From assembly GCA_020744425.1 (NCBI GenBank), contig JAGMUV010000028.1, positions 434,001 to 498,000 of the forward strand: DNA of 64,000 bases. The letters run 5' to 3'. Origin of the DNA: Dactylonectria macrodidyma (Eukaryota; Ascomycota; Sordariomycetes; Hypocreales; Nectriaceae). Below, one piece after another: positions 8,465 to 58,870 of the stretch. Every line of letters begins with the position of its first letter. Within the stretch, counting starts at the first letter, position 1. The position numbers and the translations under genes are program-made. Below the pieces are notes generated by a model. That model made no database searches, had not been told where the DNA came from, and worked only from the letters and a program-made list of their open reading frames with translations.

Positions 8465-11400
8465 ATGGCCGCGGTGAAGCTTCTTTTCAGCTTCCTTCTC
8501 GTGACCTTGGTCCAAGGTCTACATTATGACCCGTCGGAAATAGTTTACAATCTGAACACAAACCAGGAAGCAACAAACCCGTTGGAGTACTCTGGTGCCC
8601 GGAAAAACCATGATTACTGGCCGTCACCCGACAACTGGCGAATGCCGTTCTACACACTCTTCCTGGATAGATATGCAAATGGTGACCCGTCAAACGACGA
8701 CATCAATGGCACGGTGTACGAGCAGGATATAACGAGCAACCAGCTCCGGCACGGAGGTGATCTCCAAGGCCTGGTTGACAGTCTTGACTACATCCAGGGA
8801 ATGGGAGTAAAGGTTTGTTCCGCGCCTTCTATGCCGATTCTTTAAGACATTTGAAGAGAGGCCCAAGTTGACTTGGAGAAACATAGGCAATTTACATTGC
8901 TGGTTCCCCATTCATTAACTTTCCTTGGGGTGCCGACTCTTACTCTGTAAGAGTTTTTTTTCCAACCTAAAATAGGGGGAAGGATCACTGTAGACGTAGG
9001 CGATTCGGTCTGATGCTAAGAGCGAGATAGCCTCTGGATTTGACTGTGCTCGACCACCACTTTGGCACTATTACGGATTGGCAGAACATGGTCGATGAGG
9101 TCCATAGTCGGGGGATGTACATCATTTTGGACCACACTTTCTCGACGTAAGTAGCTCCCACACCAAGAAATGACATTCTCCCTAAAAAGAGGGTTGGGAG
9201 CATGCATCTGACAGAAATACTAGTATGGGTGACCTCCTCGCCTTTAAAGGTTTCCAGAACGTTACTGCGACGTTCTCCACGAAAGAGCACCAAGTTCTTT
9301 ACAAGACGCAGCGCCAGTACCTGGATTTCGCCCCATCAAACGATTACAATCAGACCTGCGACTATCCCCGATTCTACCTCGATACTGGTTACCCCGCCGG
9401 AACCAATGTGACGGACCAGCTGGTTGGCTGCTTCAATAGTGACTTCGACCAGTATGGTGACATCGAAGCTTTCGGTGTTCACCCCGACTGGCAGCGATCA
9501 CTGGCGAAGTTCGCCAGTGTCCAGGATCGTCTAAGAGAATGGGTCCCTTCTGTGCGGGAGAGACTAGAGAGATTCTCGTGCATCACAATCCAGCAGCTCG
9601 ATATTGACGGTTTCCGTTTCGACAAGGCCACACAGATCACCGTCGACGCGCTGGGCAACCATTCTGCTGCGGTCCGCGAGTGCGCCTCCCAGCTGGGGAA
9701 GAAGAACTTCTTCCTTCCGGGCGAAATTACAGGTGGTAACAACTACGGATCTATTTACCTCGGCAGAGGACGAACCGCCGACAAATACCTTGATGACGTT
9801 GCCACGGCCATGAACTTGACAACAACCAAGAAGGACAATCTCGCGAACTCGACCATTCGCGACTTGGGACAGAATGCCCTCGATGCCGCTGCTTTCCACT
9901 ACTCGGTCTACCGCTTCCTGACCCGATTCTTGGGCATGAGCGGTAACCTGGAGGCCGGTTTCGATCTGCCGCTGAACTGGGTTGATATGTGGAGCCAGAT
10001 GGTTCTCACCAATGACCTGGTCAACCCGAACACCGGCAAGTTCGATCCGCGCCACATGCACGGAACCAGCAACCAGGATGTGTTCCGATGGCCGTCTATC
10101 GCGCAGGGTGTCGAGCGATTGCTCATGGGCTTCTTCATCACCACGCTGCACATGCCGGGCCTGCCGCTTCTGCTCTACGGCGAGGAGCAGGCATTTTACA
10201 TCCTGGACAGCACAGCCGATAACTACATCTTCGGCCGTCAGGCCTTCACCGCATCGCAAGGATGGAGGATGCATGGCTGCCACGCTGGAAACAGCACTCA
10301 GTACGCCAACTGGCCGATCGAAGCCGCCCGGCACGGATGCACAGACGAGACGGCTGCCTATGACCACAAAGACCCATCGCATCCGGTCCGCAACATTCTG
10401 AAGTCCATGTACGCCATGCGCGAGAACTTCGACACTTTCAGTGAGGCCTGGCTGCTGCAGCCCATCGGAAATCAGACCTTCCACACCATCCTGAACGGCA
10501 GCAACACGACCGGGACCGAGTTCGGTATCTGGTCGGTCGCTCGTGCCTTCCAGCCGACCGTCCAGGGCAAGTTCGCCTCCTCGCCCGTCTGGCTGGTTTA
10601 TCACAACCAGAACGCCTCGACCACATACAGGTTCGACTGTGAGGATGAGGACAAGGCCTTCTACGCGCCGTTCGACCAGAAATCGACCGTCAAGAACCTC
10701 TTCTACCCCTGGGATACAATCACCCTCGGCACTTCCACAAAGAGCTGGGGCTTTTCTGGCTCCTCTAAGAACAGCGGATGCATCTCCAAGATCACCATGG
10801 CACCTTTTGAATTCCGCGCCTATGTGGCCAAGAGCGACTGGAAAGGCCCGCCTCCCATGATCACCAAGTTCACGCCCGGACACGACGTGCCTCTGCTCTC
10901 TAGCTCCGTCAACGGAGAAGTGGACATCACCTTTGAGTTCTCTGAAGTGATGGACTGTGACGGTCTCGACGAGGCCATATCCGTCACCTCGGTGACGGAG
11001 AACGGCAAAAACGCCACGGTCACTGGAGCCAAGTGCAAGACCCTGGCCTCGGATACACCGGTGGCCTCGTATATCGGGTCCATTCCCTCCAAGTTCCGCT
11101 ATTCCGCGACTCTCACAAACGTCGATGATGGCGTGCACCGAATCACCATCAAAAACGCGAGCACCAAGGCCGGCGACGATGTCATGAACTCGGTCGACCA
11201 CTTCCTGCTCCGTGTCGGCGCCGCCAACAACCCGATTGTGTTCCCCACTTCAGCCAATTACTCAAACACGTTGGTGATCAATGACAGTGGTAAGCTGTTT
11301 GTCAACCACTCCGCCCAAGGTGCCAATCAATGGCGCTACTCTACCAACTGGGGCTCGACCTGGAGCAATTGGACCGCCTACACCGGCGGCAAGCAAGAAA

Positions 11401-14400
11401 TTACCAAACTTCCGTGGTCCGGTACCAGGTTGCAGTCGTGGAGTGGTGATCACGTCATGGTTCAGTACTGGTCGCAGCTGCTCAGCAGCAGCTCCTTCAT
11501 GCAGGCCGGCGACGGCTCCGGTCAGTTTGAGCGTCGCTTCCCACATCTTTTCGCAGAGGGCACATTCAACAAGTTCGGCTTTGACGCGGGCCTTGCCAAC
11601 CACATGTCTCAGATCTCCGACGGTGTCTGGCAGATGCATCTGATGGACGAGTGGCCAACCCAGTTCCAGCTGAACGTATGGGGCATGAATCCCGACGGCA
11701 AGCCGGACGCCTCGTGGGTGTACGGTGACGTCGATTTCGATGGCGTTCTCGACCGAATGCCGCCCTCTTCGCTGGCCTTGAACGTGCTCAATGCCACCGA
11801 CCCACCGCCTCTGCCCTACCTCAGCTACCAGCTCTTGTTCAACGATGCGACCCTCGCGTTTACCAAGCAGCCGCAGGGCAACATGTGGATCCAGATTATC
11901 ATTTTCATTCTGCTTGCCGTGCTCCCCGTCGTTGGCGGCATAACGGCTGTGTGGATCTTCATGGGTTCGTTCTACAAGGTCAAGGTCAACAAGGTTGGTT
12001 TCAAGAAGGGCGGGCTGAATCCTTTCGGCAGGCTCGCCAACCGCCTGAGCTCCGTATCTTTTGAGGACTTCCGCCACAAGGACGAGGAGGGCATGGAACT
12101 CGGAGCTGTTCCCTCAAAGCGCAGAAAGGTCATCATCGCCACCATTGAGTACAACATCGACGACTGGAACATCAAGATCAAGATCGGTGGTCTGGGTGTC
12201 ATGGCTCAGCTGATGGGCAAGGCACTGCAGCACCAGGATCTGATTTGGGTCGTTCCGTGCGTCAGTGGTGTCGAGTACCCCATCGACCAGCGCGCTGAGC
12301 CGATGTACGTCCCCAGCATGGGCAAGGAGTACGAGATCGAGGTGCAGTATCACCAGGTCCAGAACATCACCTACGTGCTGCTCGACGCCCCGATTTTCCG
12401 CCAGCAGACCAAGTCCAATCCCTACCCGCCCCGTATGGACGACATCGACTCGGCCATCTACTACTCTGCCTGGAACTACTGTATCGCCGAGGCCATCCGC
12501 CGCTTCAACCCCGATCTGTACCACATCAACGACTACCACGGCGCCGCCGCACCGCTCCATCTCCTTCCTGAGCGCACCATTCCCTGCGCCCTGTCCCTGC
12601 ACAACGCTGAATTCCAGGGTCTGTGGCCCATGCGCACCCCCGAGGGGTCCAGGGAGGTCTGCGAGTTGTTCAACCTGGATCCCGAGATCGTGAAGGAGTA
12701 CGTTCAGTTCGGCTCCGTCTTCAACCTCCTGCACGCCGGTGCCAGCTATCTGCGTGTGCACCAGAAGGGTTTCGGTGCTGTCGGTGTGTCCAAGAAATAC
12801 GGCGATCGCTCGTACGCCCGTTACCCCATCTTCTGGGGTCTCTCCAAGGTTGGCCAGCTCCCCAACCCCGACCCCAGCGATACGGCAGAGTGGAGCCGCG
12901 ACGAGGAGGTCAAGGAGAAGGACGTTGCCGTCGACATGGAGACTGAGTCCAAGCGTGGCGAAATTCGCAAGCAGGCTCAGGAATGGGCTGGTCTCGAAAT
13001 CAACCCGAACGCGGAACTCTTCGTATTCGTCGGTCGTTGGTCGCTCCAGAAGGGTGTGGATCTTATCGCTGATATCTTCCCGTCCATTCTAGAGAAGCAC
13101 AAGGATGTCCAGCTTATCTGCGTCGGTCCCGTCATCGATCTGTACGGCAAGTTCGCTGCCCTGAAGCTGGCGAAGCTCATGGAGAAGTACCCCAAGCGCG
13201 TCTACTCGAAGCCCGAATTCACCACTCTCCTGCCGTACATCTTCAGCGGCGCCGAGTTTGCCTTGATTCCGTCCCGTGATGAGCCGTTCGGCCTCGTCGC
13301 CGTTGAGTTCGGTCGTAAGGGTGCGCTCGGTGTCGGTGCCCGTGTGGGTGGTCTTGGTCAAATGCCTGGTTTCTGGTACACGATCGAGTCTACGGCGCCA
13401 CAACATCTGTTGCACCAATTCCGCGAGGCCATCACTCGCGCGTTAGAGAGCAAGACCAAGATAAGGCAGAAGATGCGCGCATGGTCCGCCAAGCAACGAT
13501 TCCCGGTCGCCCAGTGGGTCGAGGATCTCGACAAGCTCCAGTCCGAGGCCATCCGCATCCACAACCGCGAGGCCAAGAAGCGGAGGCGCATCACCAGCGG
13601 CTCCCTGCTTCCCGTGCCGTCCAACGTGGACCTCCACGCTCCCGGTGGTAACAGGCCGTACTTCGATGATTCTGATATTGAAACTCCCCTCCACTTGACC
13701 CGCCAATCGCGTGCCCCTAGCCCCTCGGTGCCCAATATCGTCGAGACGGACTACGACGTCGGGGCAAGCCGCCTTTCTGTCTCGAACCCCTTCGCCGACC
13801 GAGCTCACTCGACCGCCACTCCCGGCACACCGCCAGCTGGTGCGACTACCGATGGCGCCGACGAGCCGGTCCCGCCCAACCCCATGTTCCTCAACCAGTC
13901 CGCTAGCTCGTCCGTCTCGTCCGTCTCGTCGCTGGCCACCATCACCAATGAGCCCGGCTCCCGTCTCAGTGTTGATACCCCCGCCATGCGCATGTTGTCG
14001 CCAGATGAATCCGAGACGCGCCCGAGGGCATTTGGTCTTCACAGCCCGCAGGCCGGCCCTGGCGCCTCGTTGATCTACCAGCACCGCGACCAGCGGACAT
14101 CGTCTCTTCTGTCTGTCGTGAACGTCATTGGTGAGAGACGCGACTTCAAGCTTCAAATCTTGGATCCCTTCTTCACCGACGCGACTGGCGAGTACTACAA
14201 GGCTTTCGAGCAGAAGCTGGCGGGTCTGACGGCCAAGAACTCGGATACCGAACTTTGCATCGAAGACTACCTCAAGGAAAGCGAGAAGGAGTGGTTCAAA
14301 CACTTCCACGACGCCAAGCTCGGCCGCTCCCGGTCCCCGTCGCGCACGAGATCCCCCGCACCTAGCATCAGCGGCGAGACCCTGGCTCCATCCGACGACG

Positions 14401-15858
14401 ACGACATGGAACACGGCGAGGGGCAGAACGGACCGAGCCGCGACGACGAGTTCTTGCTGGGTGCCGGCTACAAGCCGCCCAAAGGGCTCATGAAGTGGCT
14501 CAGCATCCGCGTCGGCGACTGGCCCATATACAGTTTCATCCTCGCCATCGGTCAGATCATGGCCAGCAACAGCTACCAGATCGTGCTGCTGGCTGGAGAG
14601 GCCAGTCAGACGGCCGCACAGCTGTACATCGTCGCCGGCACCTACGGAGTCACCAGCATCATGTGGTGGTTGATGTTCCGTCGTCTCTCGGCAGTCTACA
14701 CCCTCAGCTTGCCATGGTTCTTCTACGGCCTTGCGTTTGTGTTGCTCGGCGTTACGCCATTTATGCCTGAGAATGTTCGCGGCCCCGTCCGGGACACGGC
14801 GACCGCATTGTATGCGGCCGGCGCATCGAGTGGTTCGATCTTCTTTGCGATGAACTTCGGTGATGAAGGTAATAAGGCCTCCCGCCCTTTTCATTTCCTT
14901 GAATGCTTGAGATCGCTAACAGGTTGCTTCAGCTGGCGCTCCAATCTCGGTATGGATCTTCCGTGCGGCCATCATCCAGGGTATCCAGCAGGTGTACGTT
15001 GTTGGACTGTGGCACTGGGGTAGCCTGATCTCGAACAAAACCGGCCTCGCCAACGGCATGTTCATCAACAACACGGGTCCCAAGACCCTCGTGATCACCG
15101 TTCCCATCGCAGTGATTCTCTGGCTCCTCGGTATCGTCTCCTTCGTCGGCCTGCCCGACTACTACCGCCAGTCCCCCGACAAGATCCCCTCGTTCTACAT
15201 GTCACTGCTCCGCAGGCACATCGTCCCTTGGTTCCTGTTCTCGGTCGTTGTGCAGAGCTACTGGCTCTCGGCGCCGTACGGTCGCAATTGGCAGTTCCTG
15301 TTCTGCGCCAAGGCCGTCCCAGGCTGGGCCGTGCTGCTGCTGACGTTGGGCTTCTTCGTCATCCTGTGGCTCATCGGCCTCTGGATCTTCAGCAAGTTCT
15401 CGAAGACGCACCCGTGGATCGTGCCTCTGTTCGCCATTGGCCTGGGTGTCCCACGCTGGGCCCAGATGTTGTGGGGCATCTCGGGTATCGGCCTGTACCT
15501 CCCGTGGGTCGGCGGCGCCGTCACCTCCGCCATCATCTCGCGCTGTCTCTGGCTCTGGCTCGGCCTGCTGGACACCATCCAGGGCGTCGGCCTGGGCATG
15601 GTCCTCCTCCTGACCCTGACGAGACAACACGTGGCGGCCGCACTGATTGGAGCCCAGATCCTCGGCTCCGGCTTCACCATCCTGGCCAGGGCGACCGCCC
15701 CGGACAAGATCGGACCCGGGCCTGTCTTCCCCGACTTCAGCGAGGGCATCATGCCCGGCATCGCGCAGCCGTGGTTCTGGGTAGCCCTCGGCCTGCAGCT
15801 CATCCTGCCTATCGGCTTCTTTAAGTTCTTCCGGAAGGAGCAGGTCGCGAAGCCGTAA
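8465..15858 (+). CDS. ags1: Cell-wall alpha-1,3-glucan synthase
   Basis: Five exons: 8,465-8,812, 8,887-8,946, 9,031-9,146, 9,224-14,868 and 14,933-15,858. Together they give 2,364 aa, close to the usual 2,400. The enzyme makes wall alpha-1,3-glucan at the plasma membrane. A signal peptide (MAAVKLLFSFLLVTLVQG) precedes an extracellular GH13 amylase-like domain with DIDGFRFDK (residues about 301-309, nucleophile Asp), PGEITGG (acid Glu) and SNQDVFRW. A membrane segment near residue 1,065 is followed by the cytoplasmic GT5 synthase domain with KIGGLGVMAQ (about 1,159) and the E-x7-E motif EPFGLVAVE (about 1,527). A serine-rich linker leads to a C-terminal multi-span domain from about 1,935. Splice sites were chosen by continuity with the family; all introns are GT-AG, 64-84 bp. 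The frame is intact. Assignment to ags1 is by family, since paralogues exist in many fungi. Confidence 0.96.
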
Positions 15859-51028: not shown

Positions 51029-51537
51029 CACTCCCTTAGCTAAGGCTATTACTAAGGACTTAGCTACTCTATAACTTGTCTTTTGAGTTTCTGCCTTCTT
51101 TAATATCTGAGTCTTGCTTCCTTATTAGGGCTATTGCCTTCCTTCTAGCAGCATATTTTTATAATCTAGTCTCTTATAGCTTCTATTCGCTATTTTAAAG
51201 CAATCTAGTTGTCACGGGCCAGATGAGATCAACTCAAGAGGTAATGCCACTGTATTGCGAGAATACTACGATGAAGAGGAAAGAGAAAGCGGGCAGGCGC
51301 GTAGACGCGTACAAGCGTTGATAGTCCCTGTAGCCTGCCCCGTGCGTCCTAGTTACGTATCGACCCCACCCTGGGTCCAGCACTCCAGACGCTCCCGTCG
51401 CAGTCAGTTTGTAATTTTATGCTTATTTACACTTCCTTCTAGTATCTAGAGCAGCATTTCCTGCTGCTTGCCTTGCTCGTAGTCCTACTGCTGCTAGATG
51501 CTAGCTGCTAGGCCTGCTGCCTTCTGCTATTATCAGC

Positions 51538-51540
<3 letters not shown>
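51029..51540. other. Gene-free stretch
   Basis: T-rich sequence and a TTGTCACGGGCC motif near 51,210 that resembles an LTR start; no matching end was found. Confidence 0.4.

Positions 51541-51582
<42 letters not shown>
51541..51582. repeat. (CTG)14 trinucleotide repeat
   Basis: Fourteen perfect CTG units. On the minus strand the repeat encodes polyGln within a short open stretch that overlaps the dispersed repeat at 51,680-51,860; I do not regard that stretch as a gene. Confidence 0.95.
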
Positions 51583-51860: not shown

Positions 51861-52337
51861 GGATCATTACGATTCATTAGTCCGTATTAGATGGTACTCG
51901 CGCTCATATTTAGTATAGTGGCCCATCGAGCTCACAATCTCTTCCCGATCACGGATTACGGTCATCCCTTTTTTCTCGCTCATCCACCACACCAACATGT
52001 CAGATGCGCGACGTGCTGAGTTCCCAACCAGCGGGGACCAGCCAGGGTCGCCGCATCGTGGTGTTGGACGCGACAGCGCGGATGGCGGGGCCGTGTTTGC
52101 GACACCAAACGCGCCCCGTGCCGATCGCGTTCCCACGGGCTCACTCCACCCTGTGTGCGTCGCGTCAACACTATCCTCGAGGCAGTCAGCTAACAGCAGC
52201 GGAGACGTCCACTCGAATGCTGACACGGGATATACATTGCATAGTACTGGTCACGCTTCTATACCCTGGACCTGACTGTAGCGGGAGAGTTCTAGCTCTA
52301 TCATCGACCAGGGACGAAATAAGATCAGGAGATGGCC
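51861..52337. other. Gene-free stretch between repeat and HET-S-like pseudogene
   Basis: GC-richer than the sequence to its left, with overlapping open stretches on both strands but no recognisable family. It is probably the 3' flank of the HET-S-like gene. Confidence 0.4.
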
Positions 52338-53210
52338 TTAATCGAAGATGCCCCGCCCACCGTACTAATTCCCTATGTATACCGCGGACGTACCCTTCGC
52401 CTCGACGGAATCCGCTAGGTTCGCGGTCCGATCCGCGATACCCGTGCTACGAGCCAAGGCTGTCTCGCTCCACTCGTTCCCGACCCGCACCCTCGCCATC
52501 TCTTCACCCTTGATGTCCTTTACATAGTTTCTCCCCGTAATTCCCTCAATCTTCTCCGTAACGGCCTCGGACAAGACACTATCGGTACCGGCAGCAGCGT
52601 CCTACAGAGCCATCAAGCTCGGCTCGTCGTCCACCCCTTCAATTTCTAGCTCTACGAGCTTACGACGCGTGCTCCCTACGGGAAATAGCTTCTCTAGATC
52701 ATCCACAAATCCCGTAATCTGCTCTACTAGCTTGTCGAAGTTCTTGCCGTCATACAGCGCCTATGCCGCCTTCTTCAGCAGGCCCGTTCGCTTCTGTCTC
52801 TAGCGAGCGATAACCCCCAGTCGGCCGTGTAGTCCCCGAACCACTGGCTACATGTCCTTATCTTCAAAGCGCATCAAATCATCTTGCCTCGTATCGATCT
52901 CATACCGCTTCGATGACTTCTATACGGCCTGAAAGAGCAGTTCGATCTCTTCCAGTATCCCTTAGACCTGTCGAGAATCTCTATCATCAGGCGCGTCGGT
53001 GGCGAAGCGTGGGTCGTCGTTGATCGTGACTGCCTCGCCCCATCTACCCAATCGGATCTTAGCGATGTCGAGCTTCAGTTAGCAGCGTTCGAAGTCTCGG
53101 CCGAAATGGCGACTCAATTGGATGTACTTGAAGCAGTCGACATAATTGTTGAATAAGGCCCCGACGCCCAAAGCGCCGGCTACGGTGCTAAAAACTTCGG
53201 CCATGCTCAT
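52338..53210 (-). pseudogene. HET-S-like HeLo/prion-domain protein, disabled by eight in-frame stops
   Basis: From the ATG at 53,210 one minus-strand frame runs 290 codons to TAA 52,338-52,340, close to the size of Podospora HET-S. It has no indel. It begins MSMAEVFSTVAGALG with LFNNYVDCFKYIQLSRHFGR, typical of the HeLo domain, and has the later HeLo blocks RWGEAVTINDDPRF and FEDKDM. The end carries two HET-s-related amyloid motifs: EEMARVRVGNEW, and TSAVYIGN followed by YGG after a stop. Eight internal stops, all TAA or TAG, lie at codons 44, 83, 97, 121, 137, 150, 203 and 282. Each could come from a single C-to-T or G-to-A change. In the known system HeLo makes a membrane-active cell-death effector when templated by its NLR partner. 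Here no full product can be made, unless stops are read through. It is divergent from that partner gene. Confidence 0.93.
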
Positions 53211-53435
53211 CGTGAGGTGAATCGATGCCGGTTTTTCTTGTTTCCGAGAGGAGCTTTTTAATGCAGGCTGCGCCACGTGAGGAGTTGGTACAGTTGACGA
53301 AGAAGGCATCTTAGTGGTTCACCTAAGCGCCGTCCGCAGCCAACGCCGAGCCTGCTCAGCTCGGGCGCGAATGCTAAGCCTGATCCTAAACAACCTCAAC
53401 ATAGCGACGAGCAACCACGATACGCGGCAGGAATA
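53211..53435. promoter_or_regulatory. Shared 225-bp divergent promoter of the HET-S-like/NLR pair
   Basis: This short region separates the two start codons. It is GC-rich, with no clear TATA box on either side. The minus-strand frame also stays open upstream of 53,210 to 53,309, so the effector's start could lie further inside it; the homology-based start at 53,210 is preferred. Confidence 0.6.
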
Positions 53436-56400
53436 ATGAATTCCATCGGGCATGCCGCCGTTGAGGGCAACAGCAAACTCCAGGTGGGGAATACCTACAT
53501 CAACAACTACAACGAACCGAACCGCAATCGATGCATTGCCGACCTACGACTGACCGACCCCCGCCACGACAAGACGCGCATCGAGCAGACAAAGGGTGGT
53601 CTTCTCAAGGACTCGTACTGCTGGATCCTCGACAACGACGATTTCCAGCAATGGCGCAACGACGAACAGAGCCGACTGCTCTGGATCAAGGGCGATCCCG
53701 GAAAGGGCAAGACCATGTTGCTCTGCGGCATCATAGACGAGCTGAAGAAGCAGACCGCGAACCTTGTCTCCTACTTCTTCTGCCAGGGCACCGACTCGCG
53801 CATCAACAACGCAACAGCCGTGCTGCGCGGCCTCATCTACCTCCTTACAGACCAGCAGCCATCGCTCATCCCGCACGTACAGAAAAAGTACGACCAGGCG
53901 GGTAAAGGCCTCTTCGAAGACGTGAATGCCTGGTGGGCATTGTCTGAGGTCTTTGCAAACATTCTGCAAGATCCGAACTTGAAGAGCACCTTCTTGATCA
54001 TCGACGGGCTCGACGAATGCGTAACGGATCTGCCGCATCTTCTCAACTTGATTGTCGAGAAGTCATCTGAGTCTCCTCGTGTCAAGTGGATCGTCTCCAG
54101 TCGCAACTGGCTGAACATCGAGGAGCAGCTGGAAATAGCAGGACAGAAAGTAAGGCTGTGTCTCGAGCTAAACGAAAAGTCCATTTCCGCTGCTGTCAGC
54201 ATATACATCAGGCACAAGGTGGATCAATTAGCGCAGCTGAAGAAGTACGACCGCAACACACGGGACGCTGTTCAGCACCACTTATCCTCAAATGCAAATG
54301 ACACATTCCTTTGGGTAGCCTTGGTCTGCCAAGAGCTCGCGGATCCTAAGGTCCGGAAACGGCATACGCTCGCCAAGTTAAAGTCCTTCCCACAAGGACT
54401 TGATTCTCTCTACAATCGAATGATGGAACAGGTCAGTGATTTGGATGACGCAGACCTTTGCAAGCAGGTCCTAGCTATTGCTTCGGTCGTATACCGCCCT
54501 GTCTCCTTGAAGGAGTTGACGTTTCTTGCTGGGTCGCTCGGGGACTTCGACGACGACCTCGGCACCTGGGAAGAAATCATCGGATCCTGCGGCTCTCTCT
54601 TGACTCTTCGAGAGGGAGTCGTTTACTTTGTACATCAATCGGCGAAGGATTTCCTGCTCAACGAGGCATCCAATCAAATCCTGTCTTCTGGCATCGCGCA
54701 CCAGCACCGCGTCGTCTTCTCGAGATCCCTTCAGATTATGTCTGAGACCCTGCGACAAGATATATACGACTTACACCATCCCGGCATCTCTATCCACCAC
54801 ATCCGGCAGCCTGAACCAGACCCATTAGCCCCGGCACGGTACTCATGCATCTACTGGGTTGACCACCTAAACGATGCCGTCTCACACAGGACTTCGACGC
54901 CCATCAACGACCTCCATAACAACGGCACAGTCTACAAATTCCTCAGCAAGAAGTACCTCTACTGGCTTGAGGCACTGAGTCTTCTCCGAGGCATGCCTGA
55001 AGGAGTGGTTGCGATGATGAGGCTGGAGAGATTACTCGTAGGCGAATTGACTTAATTCATATAGTACTGATGCGCTAATTAGTATCTCTATTAGGAAGAG
55101 TCCAATAAGTCCCGCTTATTCGACCTCATTCGAGATGCACGTCGCTTCATCCTATCCCACGGGTGGGCGATAGGGAACGCGCCTCTTCAGGCGTATGCGT
55201 CAGCGCTTGTCTTTAGTCCTAGGCGAAGCATAACGAGAAAGCTATTTCAAGGGGAAGAGCCAAATTGGATAGTAACTAAACCGGGTATGGCAGAGGATTG
55301 GGATGCGTGCCAGGCGACGCTCGAGGGCCATGGCGGTTCGGTTTTCTCGGTGGCCTTCTCGCCCGGTGGCCAGCGTCTCGCATCGGCGTCACGGGACCGC
55401 ACCGTCAAGCTCTGGGATGCTACGACGGGCCACTGCCAGGCGACGCTCGAGGGCCATAGCGATTGGGTTATGTCGGTAGCCTTCTCGCCCGATGGCCAGC
55501 GTCTCGTATCAGCGTCAGTCAACGATACCATCAAGCTCTGGGATGCTACGACAGGCCACTGCCAGGCAACGCTCGAGGGCCACAGCGATTCGGTTTGCTC
55601 GGTGGCCTTCTCGCCCGATGGCCAGCGTCTCATATCGGCATCACATGACGGCACTATTAAGCTCTGGGATGCTACGACGGGCCACTGCCAGGCGACGCTC
55701 AAGGGCCATAGCGGTTCGGTTTGCTTAGTAGTCTTCTCGCCTAATGGCCAGTGTCTCGCATCAGCGTCAGTCGATGACACCGTCAAGCTCTGGGATGCTA
55801 TAACGGGCCACTGCCAGGCGACGCTCAAGGGCCACAGCAATTCGGTTATATCAGTAGCCTTCTCGCCCGATGGCCAGCGTCTCGCATCAGCGTCAGTCGA
55901 CGATACCATCAAGCTCTGGGATGCTACGACAGGCCACTGCCAGGCAACGCTCGAGGGCCACAGCGATTGCGTTATGTCAGTAGCCTTCTCACCCGATAGC
56001 CAGCGTCTCGCATCAGCGTCAAACAATGGCACCGTCAAGCTCTGGGATGCCACGACGGGCCACTGCCAGGCGACGCTCGAGGGCCACAGCGATTCGGTTT
56101 GCTCGGTGGCCTTCTCGCCTGATGGCCAGCGTCTCGCATCGGCGTCAATCGACGGCACCGTCAAGCTCTGGGATGCCTCGACGGGCCACTGCCAGGCGAC
56201 GTTCGAGGGCCACAGCGATTCGGTTCACTCAGTGGCCTTCTCGCCTAGTGGTCAGCGTCTCGCATCGGCATCAATCGACGGCACCGTCAAGCTCTGGGAT
56301 GCTACAACGGGCCACTGCCAGGCAACGCTTAAGGGCTATAGCAATTCGGTTATGTCAGTAGCCTTCTCGCCCGATGGCCAGCGTCTCGCATCGGCGTCAA

Positions 56401-57155
56401 TCGACGGCACCGTCAAGCTCTGGGATGCTACGACGGGCCACTGCCAGGCGACGCTTAAGGGCCACGGCGATTCGGTTTCCTCAGTAGCCTTCTCGCCCGA
56501 TAGCCAGCGTCTCGCATCAGCATCAAACGACGGCACCGTCAAGCTCTGGGATGCCTCGACGGGCTACTGCCAGGCGACGCTCGGGGGCTATGGCGATTGG
56601 GTTATGTCAGTAGCCTTCTCGCCCGATGGCCAGCATCTCGCATCGGTGTCACGCGACGGCACTGTTAAGCTCTGGGATGCCTCGACGGGCCACTGCCAGG
56701 AGACGCTCGAGGGCCACAGCGATTGGGTTATGTCAGTAGCCTTCTCGCCCGATGGCCAGCGTCTCGCATCGGCGTCAATCGACGGCACCGTCAAGCTCTG
56801 GGATGCCTCGACGGGCCACTGCCAGGCGACGTTCGAGGGCCATAGGGTCTTCAATATTATCCGTTTCGATCAGACAGGCGCTCGTCTTCTTACGGATGCT
56901 GGCACTTTCGACCTGAGCGTGCCCTCGCCCTCGCCATCCGATGCACTGCCATCCGGTCCTCCGCATCACCCGCGTCAAGGCTATGGCATCAGCGCCGATG
57001 GCGTTTGGATCACGTATCAAGGTCTGAACCTGCTCTGGCTCCCGTCAGAGTATCGTCCACATAGGACAGCAATCGCGGCATCGACTGTCGCTCTCGGCTG
57101 CAGGTCGGGACGGGTCTTACTATTCCGGTTCACGGGGGACTCTCCTCCTCATTAG
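53436..57155 (+). CDS. NACHT-WD40 NLR receptor with N-terminal HRAM amyloid motif (NWD2-type)
   Basis: Two exons (53,436-55,037 and 55,095-57,155) give 1,220 aa. The 57-bp phase-0 intron has GTAGGC, CTAAT and TTAG signals; without it five stops would fall within 16 codons. Residues 10-25 read EGNSKLQVGNTYINNY, an HRAM motif (R0) of the same type as the two in the divergent HET-S-like gene. The NACHT domain has Walker A GDPGKGKT (86-93) and Walker B LIIDGLDE (187-194). A winged-helix region follows (VVYRPVSLKELTFLAG). Residues 605-1,108 are twelve 42-residue WD40 repeats, then a half-repeat and a C-terminal tail. In Podospora, NWD2 senses a ligand with its repeats and templates HET-S folding through R0. 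Here the receptor is intact but its effector is not. Confidence 0.95.
55305..56816 (+). repeat. Twelve tandem 126-bp WD40 repeat units
   Basis: Twelve exact-length 126-bp units encode HCQATLEGHSDSVxSVAFSP-type repeats. Most positions are invariant. Variation concentrates at a few residues: after GH (S/G, D/G/N), at the residue before the first V (W, S or C), at the residue after it (F, M, C, I, H or S), and at the two or three residues after SAS (RDR, VND, HDG, VDD, NNG, IDG, NDG, RDG). This is the pattern of HNWD-type repeats under concerted evolution with diversifying ligand-contact positions. Confidence 0.97.
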
Positions 57156-57865
57156 GGCGCTACACTAACCTGTCAGTCGGTATATTGATCTATCGGCCAA
57201 TCCTCTGTTCTATATGTTTTATTTGTCTCTTTCTTTTGGAGGGTCGTAGGGGTCGGCCTGTATTACATTACTATCTTTGTTACGTCAAGATGGTTCGACA
57301 ATCTTGTATGACGTCAGACCTCCTTTAGTATTATATCCTCGGCGAATCCCGGGCGGAATAAATTTCATTCATTCATTCAAGTGCATCTTCACACCTCTAC
57401 CGTATTGACAAATAATAGGGCGCAGTGAGCATGAGGGCATAGTAGTATAGGGCTGAGTTGCATTCTGGGAGTTGAAGAGTATTAATAGTCTACACTTAGC
57501 TCGAAGGGTATATTCATGCCTGCTTTCCGGTCATGTAACATCCCACCCTTCGTTCCCTCCGGAGACCACTACCGGATAGATAACTCGGCTCGTCACATGA
57601 TCTTCTACACCTCGTGGTGTAATATAGACTCGAGTTGTCTGCGAGAGTGGTGGGTTTAACCTAAGCTACGGTTCTGAACGGCTGGCGACTGACGATTGCT
57701 AAGAAACCCCAATGTTTCTGTCCAAAGCCTAAGTCTATCACAAACCAGGCAATCATCTACGAGCCAAGACACTGAGTTCGTAAAGCTCAAATCTTCGATA
57801 GACCCTCCGCATTCCGTCAATCCTCCTACTCATCCTTGGGTTGCCTGCGACATAATGTACTAGTG
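57156..57865. other. 3' flank of the NLR gene
   Basis: It contains a short ATTC tandem (57,365-57,378) after AATAAATTT, a plausible poly(A) signal region or the end of an old element. No gene is seen. Confidence 0.4.
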
Positions 57866-58870
57866 TTACTTCACCCCGTTTTCTGAGCGGTCTAACTTGC
57901 GCGCTATCTGAATGTCTGATAACGTGCCGATATTCTTCAGTCGCCTAAGATCCTCCTCCTCCTTCGTCCACTTGCAGCGTTGTGTGCTTTTGTGTTGTGT
58001 GCTTTTAGGGCTTCCTGTGCCGAGCTCACTAGTGCTGGCGCTATCGCTGTCGATATCGTCGCGACTATCGTCGCCGCTATTATCGCTGGCAAGCATCTCA
58101 GCGCCATCGCTGCTTGCTATATTGCTCTGAACGCTTCCCTCTGACGATATATTCTGAGGATCTTGACCGGGCCCTAGCTGACCTAGCAGGCTTGAGACTA
58201 TCCGCTGAATCTTGAGCAAGCCTAGTCGCACTGAGTCTGCCTGCCCCGTGGGCATGAGCATGAGTTCAGGCCACTGGCTTAAAGGATATCCGGGCTGAAA
58301 TGGCTGACTAATAGCCGCCGTCACCTGGCTCGGTTAATCAGTGTCCGGTTGATGCCAGGAGTTAGGGTCGGGGTAAGGTGGTCGGACTCGAGTCGTGGTG
58401 AGGAGTCCGTATTTAAGTCTGATGATCTTAATCGCTTTACTAGGCCGTTACTATCCTATAATGACCGCTTTGGTGAGGAGGGCTTGGTATCTGGCTGTGG
58501 GAGGGCCTCGTCTGAGTGAATCCCCGCGGCGCTTTTATGCCCAGTAGTGCTATGGTCGTCCCCTTCCTTACATAACAGCCGGGCTTGGGTTGCTGTAGAT
58601 ATAAAGCCGAATTTCTTAGCACTCTGATTAAGGATTTCGTTATTTAGCTTAGGTGCTGAAGCCCCTTGAGCGTAAGTATTACCGGATGTTGGGGCTGATA
58701 GGTCGTGGCTTTGATAAAGATCACCCCTATTTAGTATAGCTTTAGGTGTTGTATTAGATATGGTGAAGCTGGCCGTATTGCTAATAGAACTTAGTCTGTT
58801 GTCTTCGATGCTAATGGCGGGGTCTGGAAGGAGATTTTAGCTTCTACTATGGATTTATAATGCAAAGAGT
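57866..58870 (-). pseudogene. Decayed gene with Myb/SANT-like C-terminus
   Basis: The minus strand is open from 58,324 to 57,866 (152 codons) and ends with a Myb-like helix pair: RCKWTKEEEDLRRLKNIGTL and SDIQIARKLDRSENGVK. It is preceded by an acidic Ser/Asp-rich linker (DNSGDDSRDDIDSDSAST). Upstream, protein-like sequence (KSIVEAKISFQTPP, RKGTTIALLGIKAPRG) continues to about 58,870 but is broken by several TAG and TAA codons. No initial ATG is identified. Such terminal Myb segments occur in repeated fungal ORFs; this is probably a RIP-damaged member. Confidence 0.5.

What the first reader, a model, noticed from the sequence alone, without database searches (positions are those of the whole stretch)
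52338..57155. HET-S/NWD2-type prion-signalling locus with an intact NLR and a dead effector
The sequence shows a divergent pair. The 291-codon minus frame has a HeLo domain and two HRAM-like motifs (EEMARVRVGNEW; TSAVYIGN). The 1,220-aa plus-strand NLR has a matching N-terminal motif (GNSKLQVGNTY) before NACHT and WD40. Established knowledge: in Podospora anserina NWD2 activates HET-S by amyloid templating. Here the effector has eight in-frame stops and the NLR has none. An orphan sensor could be neutral, could signal to another HRAM effector elsewhere, or could be a natural loss-of-incompatibility allele.
Basis: partly seen in the sequence, partly recalled or inferred. Interest (0 to 1): 0.95.

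Follow-up and report, generated by a model that had tools for sequence, protein, structure and literature searches.

The report
Fungal death sensor, broken neighbouring executioner
A fungal immune sensor gene has stayed intact while the cell-killing gene beside it was destroyed by a repeat-targeting mutation process, and the sensor's amyloid switch fits an intact executioner gene elsewhere in the genome better than it fits its dead neighbour.

Summary
The minus frame 53210-52338 is a full HET-S-type effector (HeLo E 1e-49, HET-s prion domain 1e-27) with eight internal stops, all TAG or TAA. The divergent NLR (1220 aa, one 57-bp intron) is intact and begins with one HRAM motif. The genome is almost certainly Dactylonectria macrodidyma. 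The stops belong to a CpA-biased C:G>T:A excess, as in repeat-induced point mutation (RIP). A 93%-identical copy of the pair lies on another contig; its NLR is intact too, and its effector is broken by a different lesion, a 5-bp deletion that unplugs HeLo from the amyloid switch. A sister species carries an unbroken orthologue. The NLR is not an orphan genome-wide: an intact, solitary HET-S gene (contig C6) exists. Among 173 HET-S effectors compared, its second repeat is the best match to the NLR motif; the dead neighbour's type ranks 148th. Best reading: RIP-type decay killed the linked executioner, the sensor was kept, and it probably signals to the unlinked one. Lesions and motif ranks are shown; selection on the sensor and trans signalling are inferred. 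A new variant of the known HET-S/NWD2 kind.

The parts
52338..53210 (-). Broken HET-S-type effector gene (HeLo + HET-s prion domain), eight internal stops; by comparison with D. estremocensis P0227 the start is probably the second Met (53204)
52605..53186 (-). HeLo domain (PF14479), residues 9-202 of the frame
   Evidence: E 1.1e-49; genome scan
52359..52553 (-). HET-s_218-289 prion-forming domain (PF11558), residues 220-284
52473..52535 (-). HRAM repeat r1 (residues 226-246 of the frame)
   Evidence: same numbers as the 226-246/262-282 repeats of HET-S given in PMC4344463 (passage)
52365..52427 (-). HRAM repeat r2 (residues 262-282), last position hit by a stop
53211..53435 (.). 225-bp region between the divergent effector and NLR start codons
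53436..55037 (+). NLR exon 1 (534 codons): HRAM r0, NACHT
53436..53498 (+). HRAM r0 motif, NLR residues 1-21
   Evidence: (pooled profile hit residues 1-20)
53673..54209 (+). NACHT domain (PF05729), residues 80-258
   Evidence: E 5.9e-18
55038..55094 (+). Predicted 57-bp GT..AG intron; splice sites also present in copy B
55095..57155 (+). NLR exon 2 (686 codons): WD40 region
55311..56822 (+). 12 WD40 units of 126 bp; most variable unit positions, A and B pooled: 28, 12, 30, then 10 and 9 tied
51916..57885 (.). Duplicated segment; copy B at C32 (L011 684-6615, reverse), 92.9% identical over an alignment of 5975 positions
57501..57885 (.). Right flank with a strong CpA-biased C:G>T:A excess in this copy
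   Evidence: 21 of 196 C/G sites, OR 11.5, p 1e-6

Best explanation
This is a decayed HET-S/NWD2-type locus. Shown: the linked HeLo/HRAM executioner carries eight stops in a CpA-biased C:G>T:A excess, the signature of repeat-induced point mutation; the NLR beside it is open, and the duplicate pair on another contig shows the same picture with a different lesion. Inferred: the NLR was kept by selection because it works in trans. [quoted passage not shown] the C6 HeLo domain then inserts in the membrane and kills the cell. A poor fit between r0 and the linked effector would have relaxed selection on that effector and allowed its double loss. Inside this statement I would give RIP-type death of the effector about 0.85, selection to keep the NLR about 0.65, and trans signalling to C6 about 0.4.
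For: Effector identity. Against copy B, A has T/A for C/G at 42 effector sites; 23 of the 42 are CpA/TpG (OR 6.6, p 4e-8); each of the 8 internal stops differs from B by one transition. Expected stops 2.0 at random C/G sites (P 3e-4), 4.3 once the CpA bias is allowed for. Transitions to transversions 52:4 in the effector, 20:16 in NLR exon 1. The same signature lies on the other side of the NLR (57501-57885, OR 11.5). CA/TA 0.96 in effector A, 2.17 in effector B. Two DNA-methylase loci in the genome (not shown to be RID). NLR A and NLR B both open through the same splice sites, 534+686 codons, same r0; exon 1 dN/dS 0.40. WD40 units of A carry 101 low-GC changes against B's consensus and no stop, 7.5 expected. 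The most variable WD40 positions (28, 12, 30, 10; 9 ties with 10) fit the four positively selected codons of Podospora NWD genes at a constant offset of 3. C6 is intact, 289 aa, HeLo 2e-49 and PF11558 8e-21; NLR A finds no NLR in the 9.9 kb around it (no hit of NLR size or E below 0.4 outside the motif). r0 of NLR A: C6 r2 ranks 1 of 173 (score 56), the neighbour's type 148 (24); on distinct r2 sequences 1 and 140 of 162. tblastn of NLR exon 1 against 11 effector loci of this genome: C6 r2 E 0.002, C1 r2 0.63, a non-HRAM stretch of C21:326 at 9.5, no hit inside the other 8 effectors at E<=50, own neighbour included. Shuffling r2 outside the anchor positions gives P 1.5e-4 for C6, 0.18 for the neighbour's type. 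Unbroken orthologue at 90% in D. estremocensis.
Against: RIP should hit all of a duplicated segment; NLR exon 1, 98% identical between copies, shows little of it (1.7% of C/G sites, no CpA bias), so selection, gene conversion or another order of events must be added. The WD40 no-stop result weakens in other versions: P 0.017 and no CpA bias with a consensus drawn mostly from A's own units, P 0.036 when identical changes in several units are counted once, 0.068 when changes also seen in B are dropped. dN/dS 0.40 is only moderate purifying selection, and the NLR tail (101 codons) has 8 non-synonymous against 1 synonymous differences. In A alone WD40 positions 10 and 30 rank only 7th and 8th. r0-r2 similarity is an imperfect guide: adjacent effectors rank 3 (C31), 34 (C1), 43 (F. 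falciforme) and 48 (C21C) of 173, 23 for the broken C21Cb NLR, and C6 also ranks 1 and 2 for two Fusarium oxysporum NLR motifs. The genome's HRAM1-like motifs may cross-seed freely. No expression, population or biochemical data.
Confidence: 0.5

Rival explanations
1. Neutral orphan: the effector died recently, the NLR has no partner in use and simply has not had time to decay.
For: NLR A and B differ by only 2.2% in exon 1 and dN/dS is 0.40, not near zero. In Podospora the partner of a changed effector is lost too (PMC3321046 passage).
Against: Two NLR copies are open beside two differently broken effectors. No stop among 101 WD40 low-GC changes, 7.5 expected (P 0.036 or 0.068 on distinct events). 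An HRAM executioner is present.
Confidence: 0.25
2. Polymorphic incompatibility locus: other strains carry an intact linked effector, so this strain has a loss allele that escapes cell death on fusion while the NLR is kept for heterokaryons.
For: The effector is intact in D. estremocensis and in Fusarium species. Podospora has the mirror case, effector allele changed and NLR broken (PMC3321046, PMC4344463 passages).
Against: One genome only; the same gene is broken in a second place by a different lesion, which points to dispensability rather than to an allele.
Confidence: 0.15
3. NLR A signals to a damaged executioner: the C31 effector (open from HeLo position 18 on) or a HeLo-only protein such as copy B's 375-codon open frame.
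For: Both frames are open. C31 keeps r1 and r2 in frame.
Against: Copy B has both repeats out of the HeLo frame, so it should not be templated. C31's N-terminus, which carries the membrane-inserting helix (recalled), does not match the HeLo model; r0 of A scores 38 with its r2 against 56 with C6, and tblastn finds no hit in it.
Confidence: 0.08
4. No RIP: ordinary AT-biased mutation in a gene released from selection.
For: The loss of C/G in A is seen, weaker, in the near flanks (19 of 465 sites, OR 2.6, p 0.049).
Against: CpA bias OR 6.6 and 11.5 in two blocks, 52:4 transitions to transversions, and a rate twice that of the near flanks, p 0.008.
Confidence: 0.12

Closest known systems
Podospora anserina het-S / nwd2 (HET-S HeLo-PFD effector with NWD2 NACHT-WD40 NLR)
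   Same: HeLo plus two 21-residue repeats at the same residue numbers; divergent adjacent NLR with a single r0, NACHT and WD40 (PMC4344463 passages).
   Different: Here the effector is dead and the NLR intact; in wild het-s strains it is nwd2 that is broken, by a transposon scar (PMC3321046, PMC4344463 passages). Here the locus is duplicated and an unlinked intact HET-S exists.
Fusarium falciforme FALCPG4_014828 / FALCPG4_014829
   Same: Effector 85% identical to the window's frame; NLR with the next locus tag on a contig of the same length, 70% identical over NLR residues 1-534.
   Different: Effector unbroken, and its NLR has a different r0 type.
RIP-killed NWDp pseudogenes of Podospora (NWDp1, NWDp2)
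   Same: Nonsense decay of a fungal recognition gene by C:G>T:A at CpA (PMC1805685 passages).
   Different: There the NLR itself (NACHT part) is hit and its WD repeats are spared; here the effector is hit and the NACHT part is spared.
Non-adjacent or branched amyloid signalling proposed from genome surveys
   Same: NLR and effector sharing a motif but unlinked (PMC9815663 section 27; PMC7889193 passages).
   Different: Those are co-occurrence counts and predictions; here one NLR, one dead linked partner and one best-matching unlinked partner are named.

Membership tests
HET-S-type effector (HeLo-HRAM) | N-terminal HeLo domain | tested here: met
   PF14479 E 1.1e-49 with X at stops
HET-S-type effector (HeLo-HRAM) | C-terminal prion domain with two 21-residue repeats (N at 3, hydrophobic 5/8/10/16/18, G at 19) | tested here: met
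   PF11558 E 1.1e-27; r1 226-246, r2 262-282. Position 10 of r1 is G, and position 15 of r2 is A where R/K is usual
HET-S-type effector (HeLo-HRAM) | Uninterrupted reading frame | tested here: not met
   Eight internal stops: a pseudogene of the family
NWD2-type NLR | NACHT plus WD40 | tested here: met
   PF05729 5.9e-18, PF00400 12 stretches
NWD2-type NLR | Single HRAM r0 at the extreme N-terminus | tested here: met
   Pooled profile of 277 repeats hits residues 1-20 at 8.5 bits, best of 300 shuffles 2.3; r2-only profile does not beat shuffles; PF11558 does not list it
NWD2-type NLR | r0 resembles the r1/r2 of the adjacent effector (general trend in PMC4518210, Results read) | tested here: not met
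   Neighbour-type r2 ranks 148 of 173; 5 of 20 identities; no tblastn hit at E<=50
NWD2-type NLR | Adjacent, divergently transcribed effector | tested here: met
   225 bp between the two ATGs
HET-S/NWD2 system | Amyloid templating of the effector by r0 and cell death | not testable with these tools
   Needs a seeding assay
RIP | C:G>T:A preferentially at CpA in repeated sequence over 80% identical | tested here: met
   23 of 42 changes at CpA/TpG, OR 6.6; locus duplicated at 93%
RIP | Mutation along the whole repeat | tested here: not met
   NLR exon 1 spared: 15 of 864 C/G sites, OR 1.5
RIP | RID-type DNA methyltransferase | tested here: inconclusive
   PF00145 matches at two loci; not assigned to RID or DIM-2

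The most novel reading that the evidence does not exclude
Partner switching in an amyloid death pathway: NLR copies whose r0 motif does not fit their linked executioner are wired to a single unlinked HET-S (C6), which acts as a shared hub for several sensors, and the linked executioners, now useless, were lost repeatedly by different lesions while the sensors went on diversifying.
Probability: 0.25. Interest if true: 0.85.

Novelty: new variant of a known kind. Interest (0 to 1): 0.56.

Why it matters
Amyloid NLR pathways are usually drawn as closed pairs inherited together. This locus offers a natural experiment in which the linked executioner is gone (twice, by different lesions) and the sensor is kept, with an intact unlinked executioner left in the same genome. 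It turns the question whether HRAM pathways can be rewired into hub networks into a seeding assay with named partners, and it is the mirror image of the Podospora het-s case, where the sensor gene decayed.

Tried and rejected
A-to-I editing of the stops (stop to Trp, known in related fungi; recalled): two of the eight stops are TAA, which one edit cannot open, and relatives have Gln or Trp at these codons, so editing would not explain the pattern.

Alternative splicing round the stops: the deposited protein EDB81DRAFT_873261 (P0284, 226 aa) is such a model. By its sequence it belongs to copy C (C21:722 kb), where the frame has stops and a frameshift; I take it as an annotation artefact.

A changed genetic code: rejected, since normal Gln codons remain in the frame (6 CAR against 8 internal TAR).

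Switch of r0 shown by the NLR tree: the NBD tree is unrooted and does not place A/B/C26 clearly with either r0 type, so I cannot say whether r0 changed or the NLR arrived with it.

Other HeLo genes as partners: 7 further HeLo frames, of the 56 genome hits, were read at their C-termini; none resembles r0 of A (best score 15). The other HeLo hits not named in this report were not read.

Sensor-to-executioner count: of nine r0-bearing NLRs read over their whole length, both exon frames are open in 6 (A, B, C21C, C1, C31, C35) and broken in 3 (C26, C20, C21Cb); splicing was worked out only for A and B. Of seven loci with a long HeLo match followed by PF11558 (A, B, C, C1, C6, C15, C31), one (C6) is open from Met to stop with both domains whole. 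I fetched C21C, C1 and C35 because their frames looked open, so I give no significance. Six further r0-like N-termini (C52, C18, C10, C21c, C77, C12) were read only as short pieces; C52 and C18 hits carry one stop each. One search scored 81 of 285 candidates, so the NLR list is a lower bound.
Full report
What is there. The minus frame 53210-52338 reads as a complete HET-S-type effector: HeLo (PF14479, E 1.1e-49) followed by the HET-s prion domain (PF11558, E 1.1e-27), with X at each stop. It has eight internal stops, six TAG and two TAA, no TGA, and a terminal TAA. The repeats lie at residues 226-246 and 262-282, the numbers given for HET-S in PMC4344463 (passage). 225 bp away on the plus strand starts an NLR of 1220 aa in two exons with a predicted 57-bp GT..AG intron, with NACHT and WD40. 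Its residues 1-20 match a pooled profile of 277 r1 and r2 repeats (the two named D. macrodidyma proteins left out) at 8.5 bits; the best of 300 shuffled NLRs reached 2.3. An r1-only profile also separates it (5.3 against 1.1); an r2-only profile does not (1.9 against 3.5). Pfam's two-repeat model does not list this N-terminus at E<=1.

Where it is. The window is G000:C21:434001-498000 of a 77.3-Mb assembly in 77 contigs. C21 is 947,865 bp long, the same length as the contig of the deposited Dactylonectria macrodidyma protein EDB81DRAFT_873261, and the C6 HET-S is 100% identical to a D. macrodidyma protein (that record's contig is 1,626,943 bp, C6 here 1,620,000). I take the genome as D. macrodidyma (Nectriaceae).

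The locus is duplicated. An alignment of 5975 positions at 92.9% joins window 51916-57885 to contig C32 (copy B, L011). Copy B's NLR is open through the same splice sites (534+686 codons) with the same r0. Its effector has an open HeLo domain but a 5-bp deletion in r1 that puts both repeats out of frame; the frame is open for 375 codons stop to stop. A third effector copy (C, C21:722 kb, 89%) has five stops in the HeLo match and a frameshift inside r2. The lesions of A and B differ, which suggests that both were broken after the duplication. A sister species keeps the gene whole: D. estremocensis P0227, 288 aa, 90% identical with X counted as mismatch; the best Fusarium oxysporum and F. falciforme hits are at 84-87%.

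How the effector died. Compared with copy B over 868 aligned sites of the effector frame, A has T/A for C/G at 42 sites, B for A at 10, and there are 4 transversions; NLR exon 1 has 15, 5 and 16 in 1602. 23 of the 42 lie at CpA/TpG (94 of 501 C/G sites; OR 6.6, p 4e-8). Each of the eight stops differs from copy B by one transition; 2.0 stops are expected at random C/G sites (P 3e-4) and 4.3 given the CpA bias. With copy C as a third sequence, 33 of 40 changes unique to A are C>T or G>A. Silent divergence between A and B is 0.19 in the effector and 0.043 in NLR exon 1. The same signature appears to the right of the NLR at 57501-57885 (21 of 196 C/G sites, OR 11.5, p 1e-6), more weakly in the near flanks and WD40 (OR 2.6, p 0.049; OR 1.7, p 0.024), and not in exon 1 (15 of 864, OR 1.5, p 0.55). 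This is what RIP does (C:G to T:A, preferring CpA, in repeats; PMC1805685 passages). Against a simple RIP story, exon 1 at 98% identity should have been hit as well.

Why the NLR matters. Both NLR copies are open. Exon 1 dN/dS is 0.40; the last 101 codons have 8 non-synonymous and 1 synonymous differences. Relative to copy B's consensus unit, the 12 WD40 units of A carry 101 low-GC changes and no stop, where the number of exposed Gln and Trp codons predicts 7.5 (P 1.2e-4). Weaker versions: P 0.017 with a consensus drawn mostly from A's own units (in which only two B units were captured), 0.036 counting each distinct change once, 0.068 dropping those also seen in B. Pooled over A and B, the most variable unit positions are 28, 12 and 30, then 10 and 9 tied (in A alone 12, 28, 5, 38, with 10 and 30 seventh and eighth). 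Positions 10, 12, 28 and 30 are, with an offset of three, codons 7, 9, 25 and 27, the four under strong positive selection in the Podospora NWD family (PMC1805685 passage). The chance of four positions falling on that spacing at any offset is 2e-4 to 4e-4, before allowing for the tie. The sensor face looks like a diversifying recognition surface.

Partners in the genome. The genome has 56 HeLo matches and 27 PF11558 matches at E<=1, 13 above the cut-off. Of seven loci with a long HeLo match followed by PF11558 (A, B, C, C1, C6, C15, C31), one, C6, is open from Met to stop with both domains whole (289 aa); C31 is open from HeLo position 18 on. C24, C32:288 kb and C21:698 kb are fragments. C6 has no NLR in the 9.9 kb read: tblastn of NLR A gives only the motif itself (E 0.002) and scraps at E 0.4 or worse. 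Its orthologue in D. estremocensis is whole (85%). Effector C has NLRs on both sides: a split one with in-frame stops upstream (C21Cb) and an open, convergent one downstream (C21C).

Motif matching. The r0 of NLR A was scored against r2 of 173 effectors: 169 from two protein searches plus four from this genome. C6 ranks first (BLOSUM62 score 56, 10 of 20 identities); the neighbour's type, taken from copy B because A's own r2 holds a stop, ranks 148th (24, 5 of 20); over the 162 distinct r2 sequences the ranks are 1 and 140. Calibration with adjacent effectors: C31 ranks 3, C21Cb 23, C1 34, F. falciforme 43, C21C 48. Shuffling non-anchor positions of the C6 r2 gives P 1.5e-4; of the neighbour's r2, P 0.18. 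A test without any motif definition agrees: tblastn of NLR exon 1 against 11 effector loci of this genome hits the C6 r2 with residues 2-21 (E 0.002), C1 at 0.63, a non-HRAM stretch of C21:326 at 9.5, and nothing in the other eight at E<=50, the window's own neighbour included. Two F. oxysporum NLRs with a similar r0 (P0114, P0183) also rank C6 first and second, so this is an r0 type, not a private match. In F. falciforme the orthologue of the dead effector has an NLR with the next locus tag and another r0 type. The NBD tree does not settle whether r0 was exchanged in this lineage.

Reading. NWD2-type logic: ligand binding at WD40, NACHT oligomerisation, r0 folding, templating of an effector prion domain, HeLo pore formation (worked out in Podospora; PMC4344463 passages; PMC4518210 abstract, Results and one Discussion section). 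Here the linked effector is gone and the best-fitting intact effector is unlinked. The authors of PMC3321046 argued that loss of either partner leaves the other without selection (passage), and nwd2 is a pseudogene in het-s strains (PMC4344463 passage); the present locus is the mirror case with the sensor kept. Unlinked amyloid signalling has been suspected from surveys, most often for HRAM/NLR12 motifs, with 5.7 NLR-side motifs to 1 effector-side in some genomes (PMC9815663 section 27), and branched pathways have been predicted (PMC7889193 passage). The listings showed me no paper on this locus; I did not open most of the papers listed.

Limits. One genome, no expression, no strains, no experiments. 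The 5-bp deletion in copy B could be an assembly error. Short motifs give weak statistics. I hold RIP-type death as very likely, selection on the NLR as likely, and trans signalling as the leading but unproven idea.

Noticed in passing
L015 (G000:C34:4006300-4016200) and L047: An open HeLo gene (297-aa frame) ends in ...NTVTFSGDNNSGFQLGVN..., and an NLR about 3.9 kb away begins with ...NAVNFTGGGNAGFQLGIN...: a second, apparently intact effector/NLR pair with a different, perhaps PP-like (recalled), amyloid motif.
   Followed up: partly
L012 (G000:C21:326615-327229, minus): Another open HeLo gene with a similar non-HRAM C-terminus (...NVTFSGHSNSGLQPEINTGTV...), on the same contig as the window.
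   Followed up: no
L013 (G000:C21:722 kb): The deposited gene model EDB81DRAFT_873261 appears to splice out the stops of effector copy C, so a pseudogene is listed as a protein.
   Followed up: partly
L011 (G000:C32:187346-188 kb): Copy B encodes a well-kept HeLo domain (4 changes of its own in 238 residues against 12 plus stops in A) whose frame runs on out of the HRAM frame: a HeLo domain detached from its switch.
   Followed up: partly
L033 (G000:C26:627500-634500): A third NLR copy, 97% identical with the same r0, cut off after about one WD40 unit and with a frame break.
   Followed up: no
window 51535-51582: A (CTG)n tract (CAG on the minus strand) left of the locus.
   Followed up: no
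window 9225-15023: A 1932-aa open frame with starch-synthase-type glycosyltransferase domains, perhaps an alpha-glucan synthase (recalled), in a GC-rich island.
   Followed up: no
window 57501-57885: Dense CpA-type C:G>T:A differences from copy B just right of the NLR; I did not identify a gene there.
   Followed up: partly
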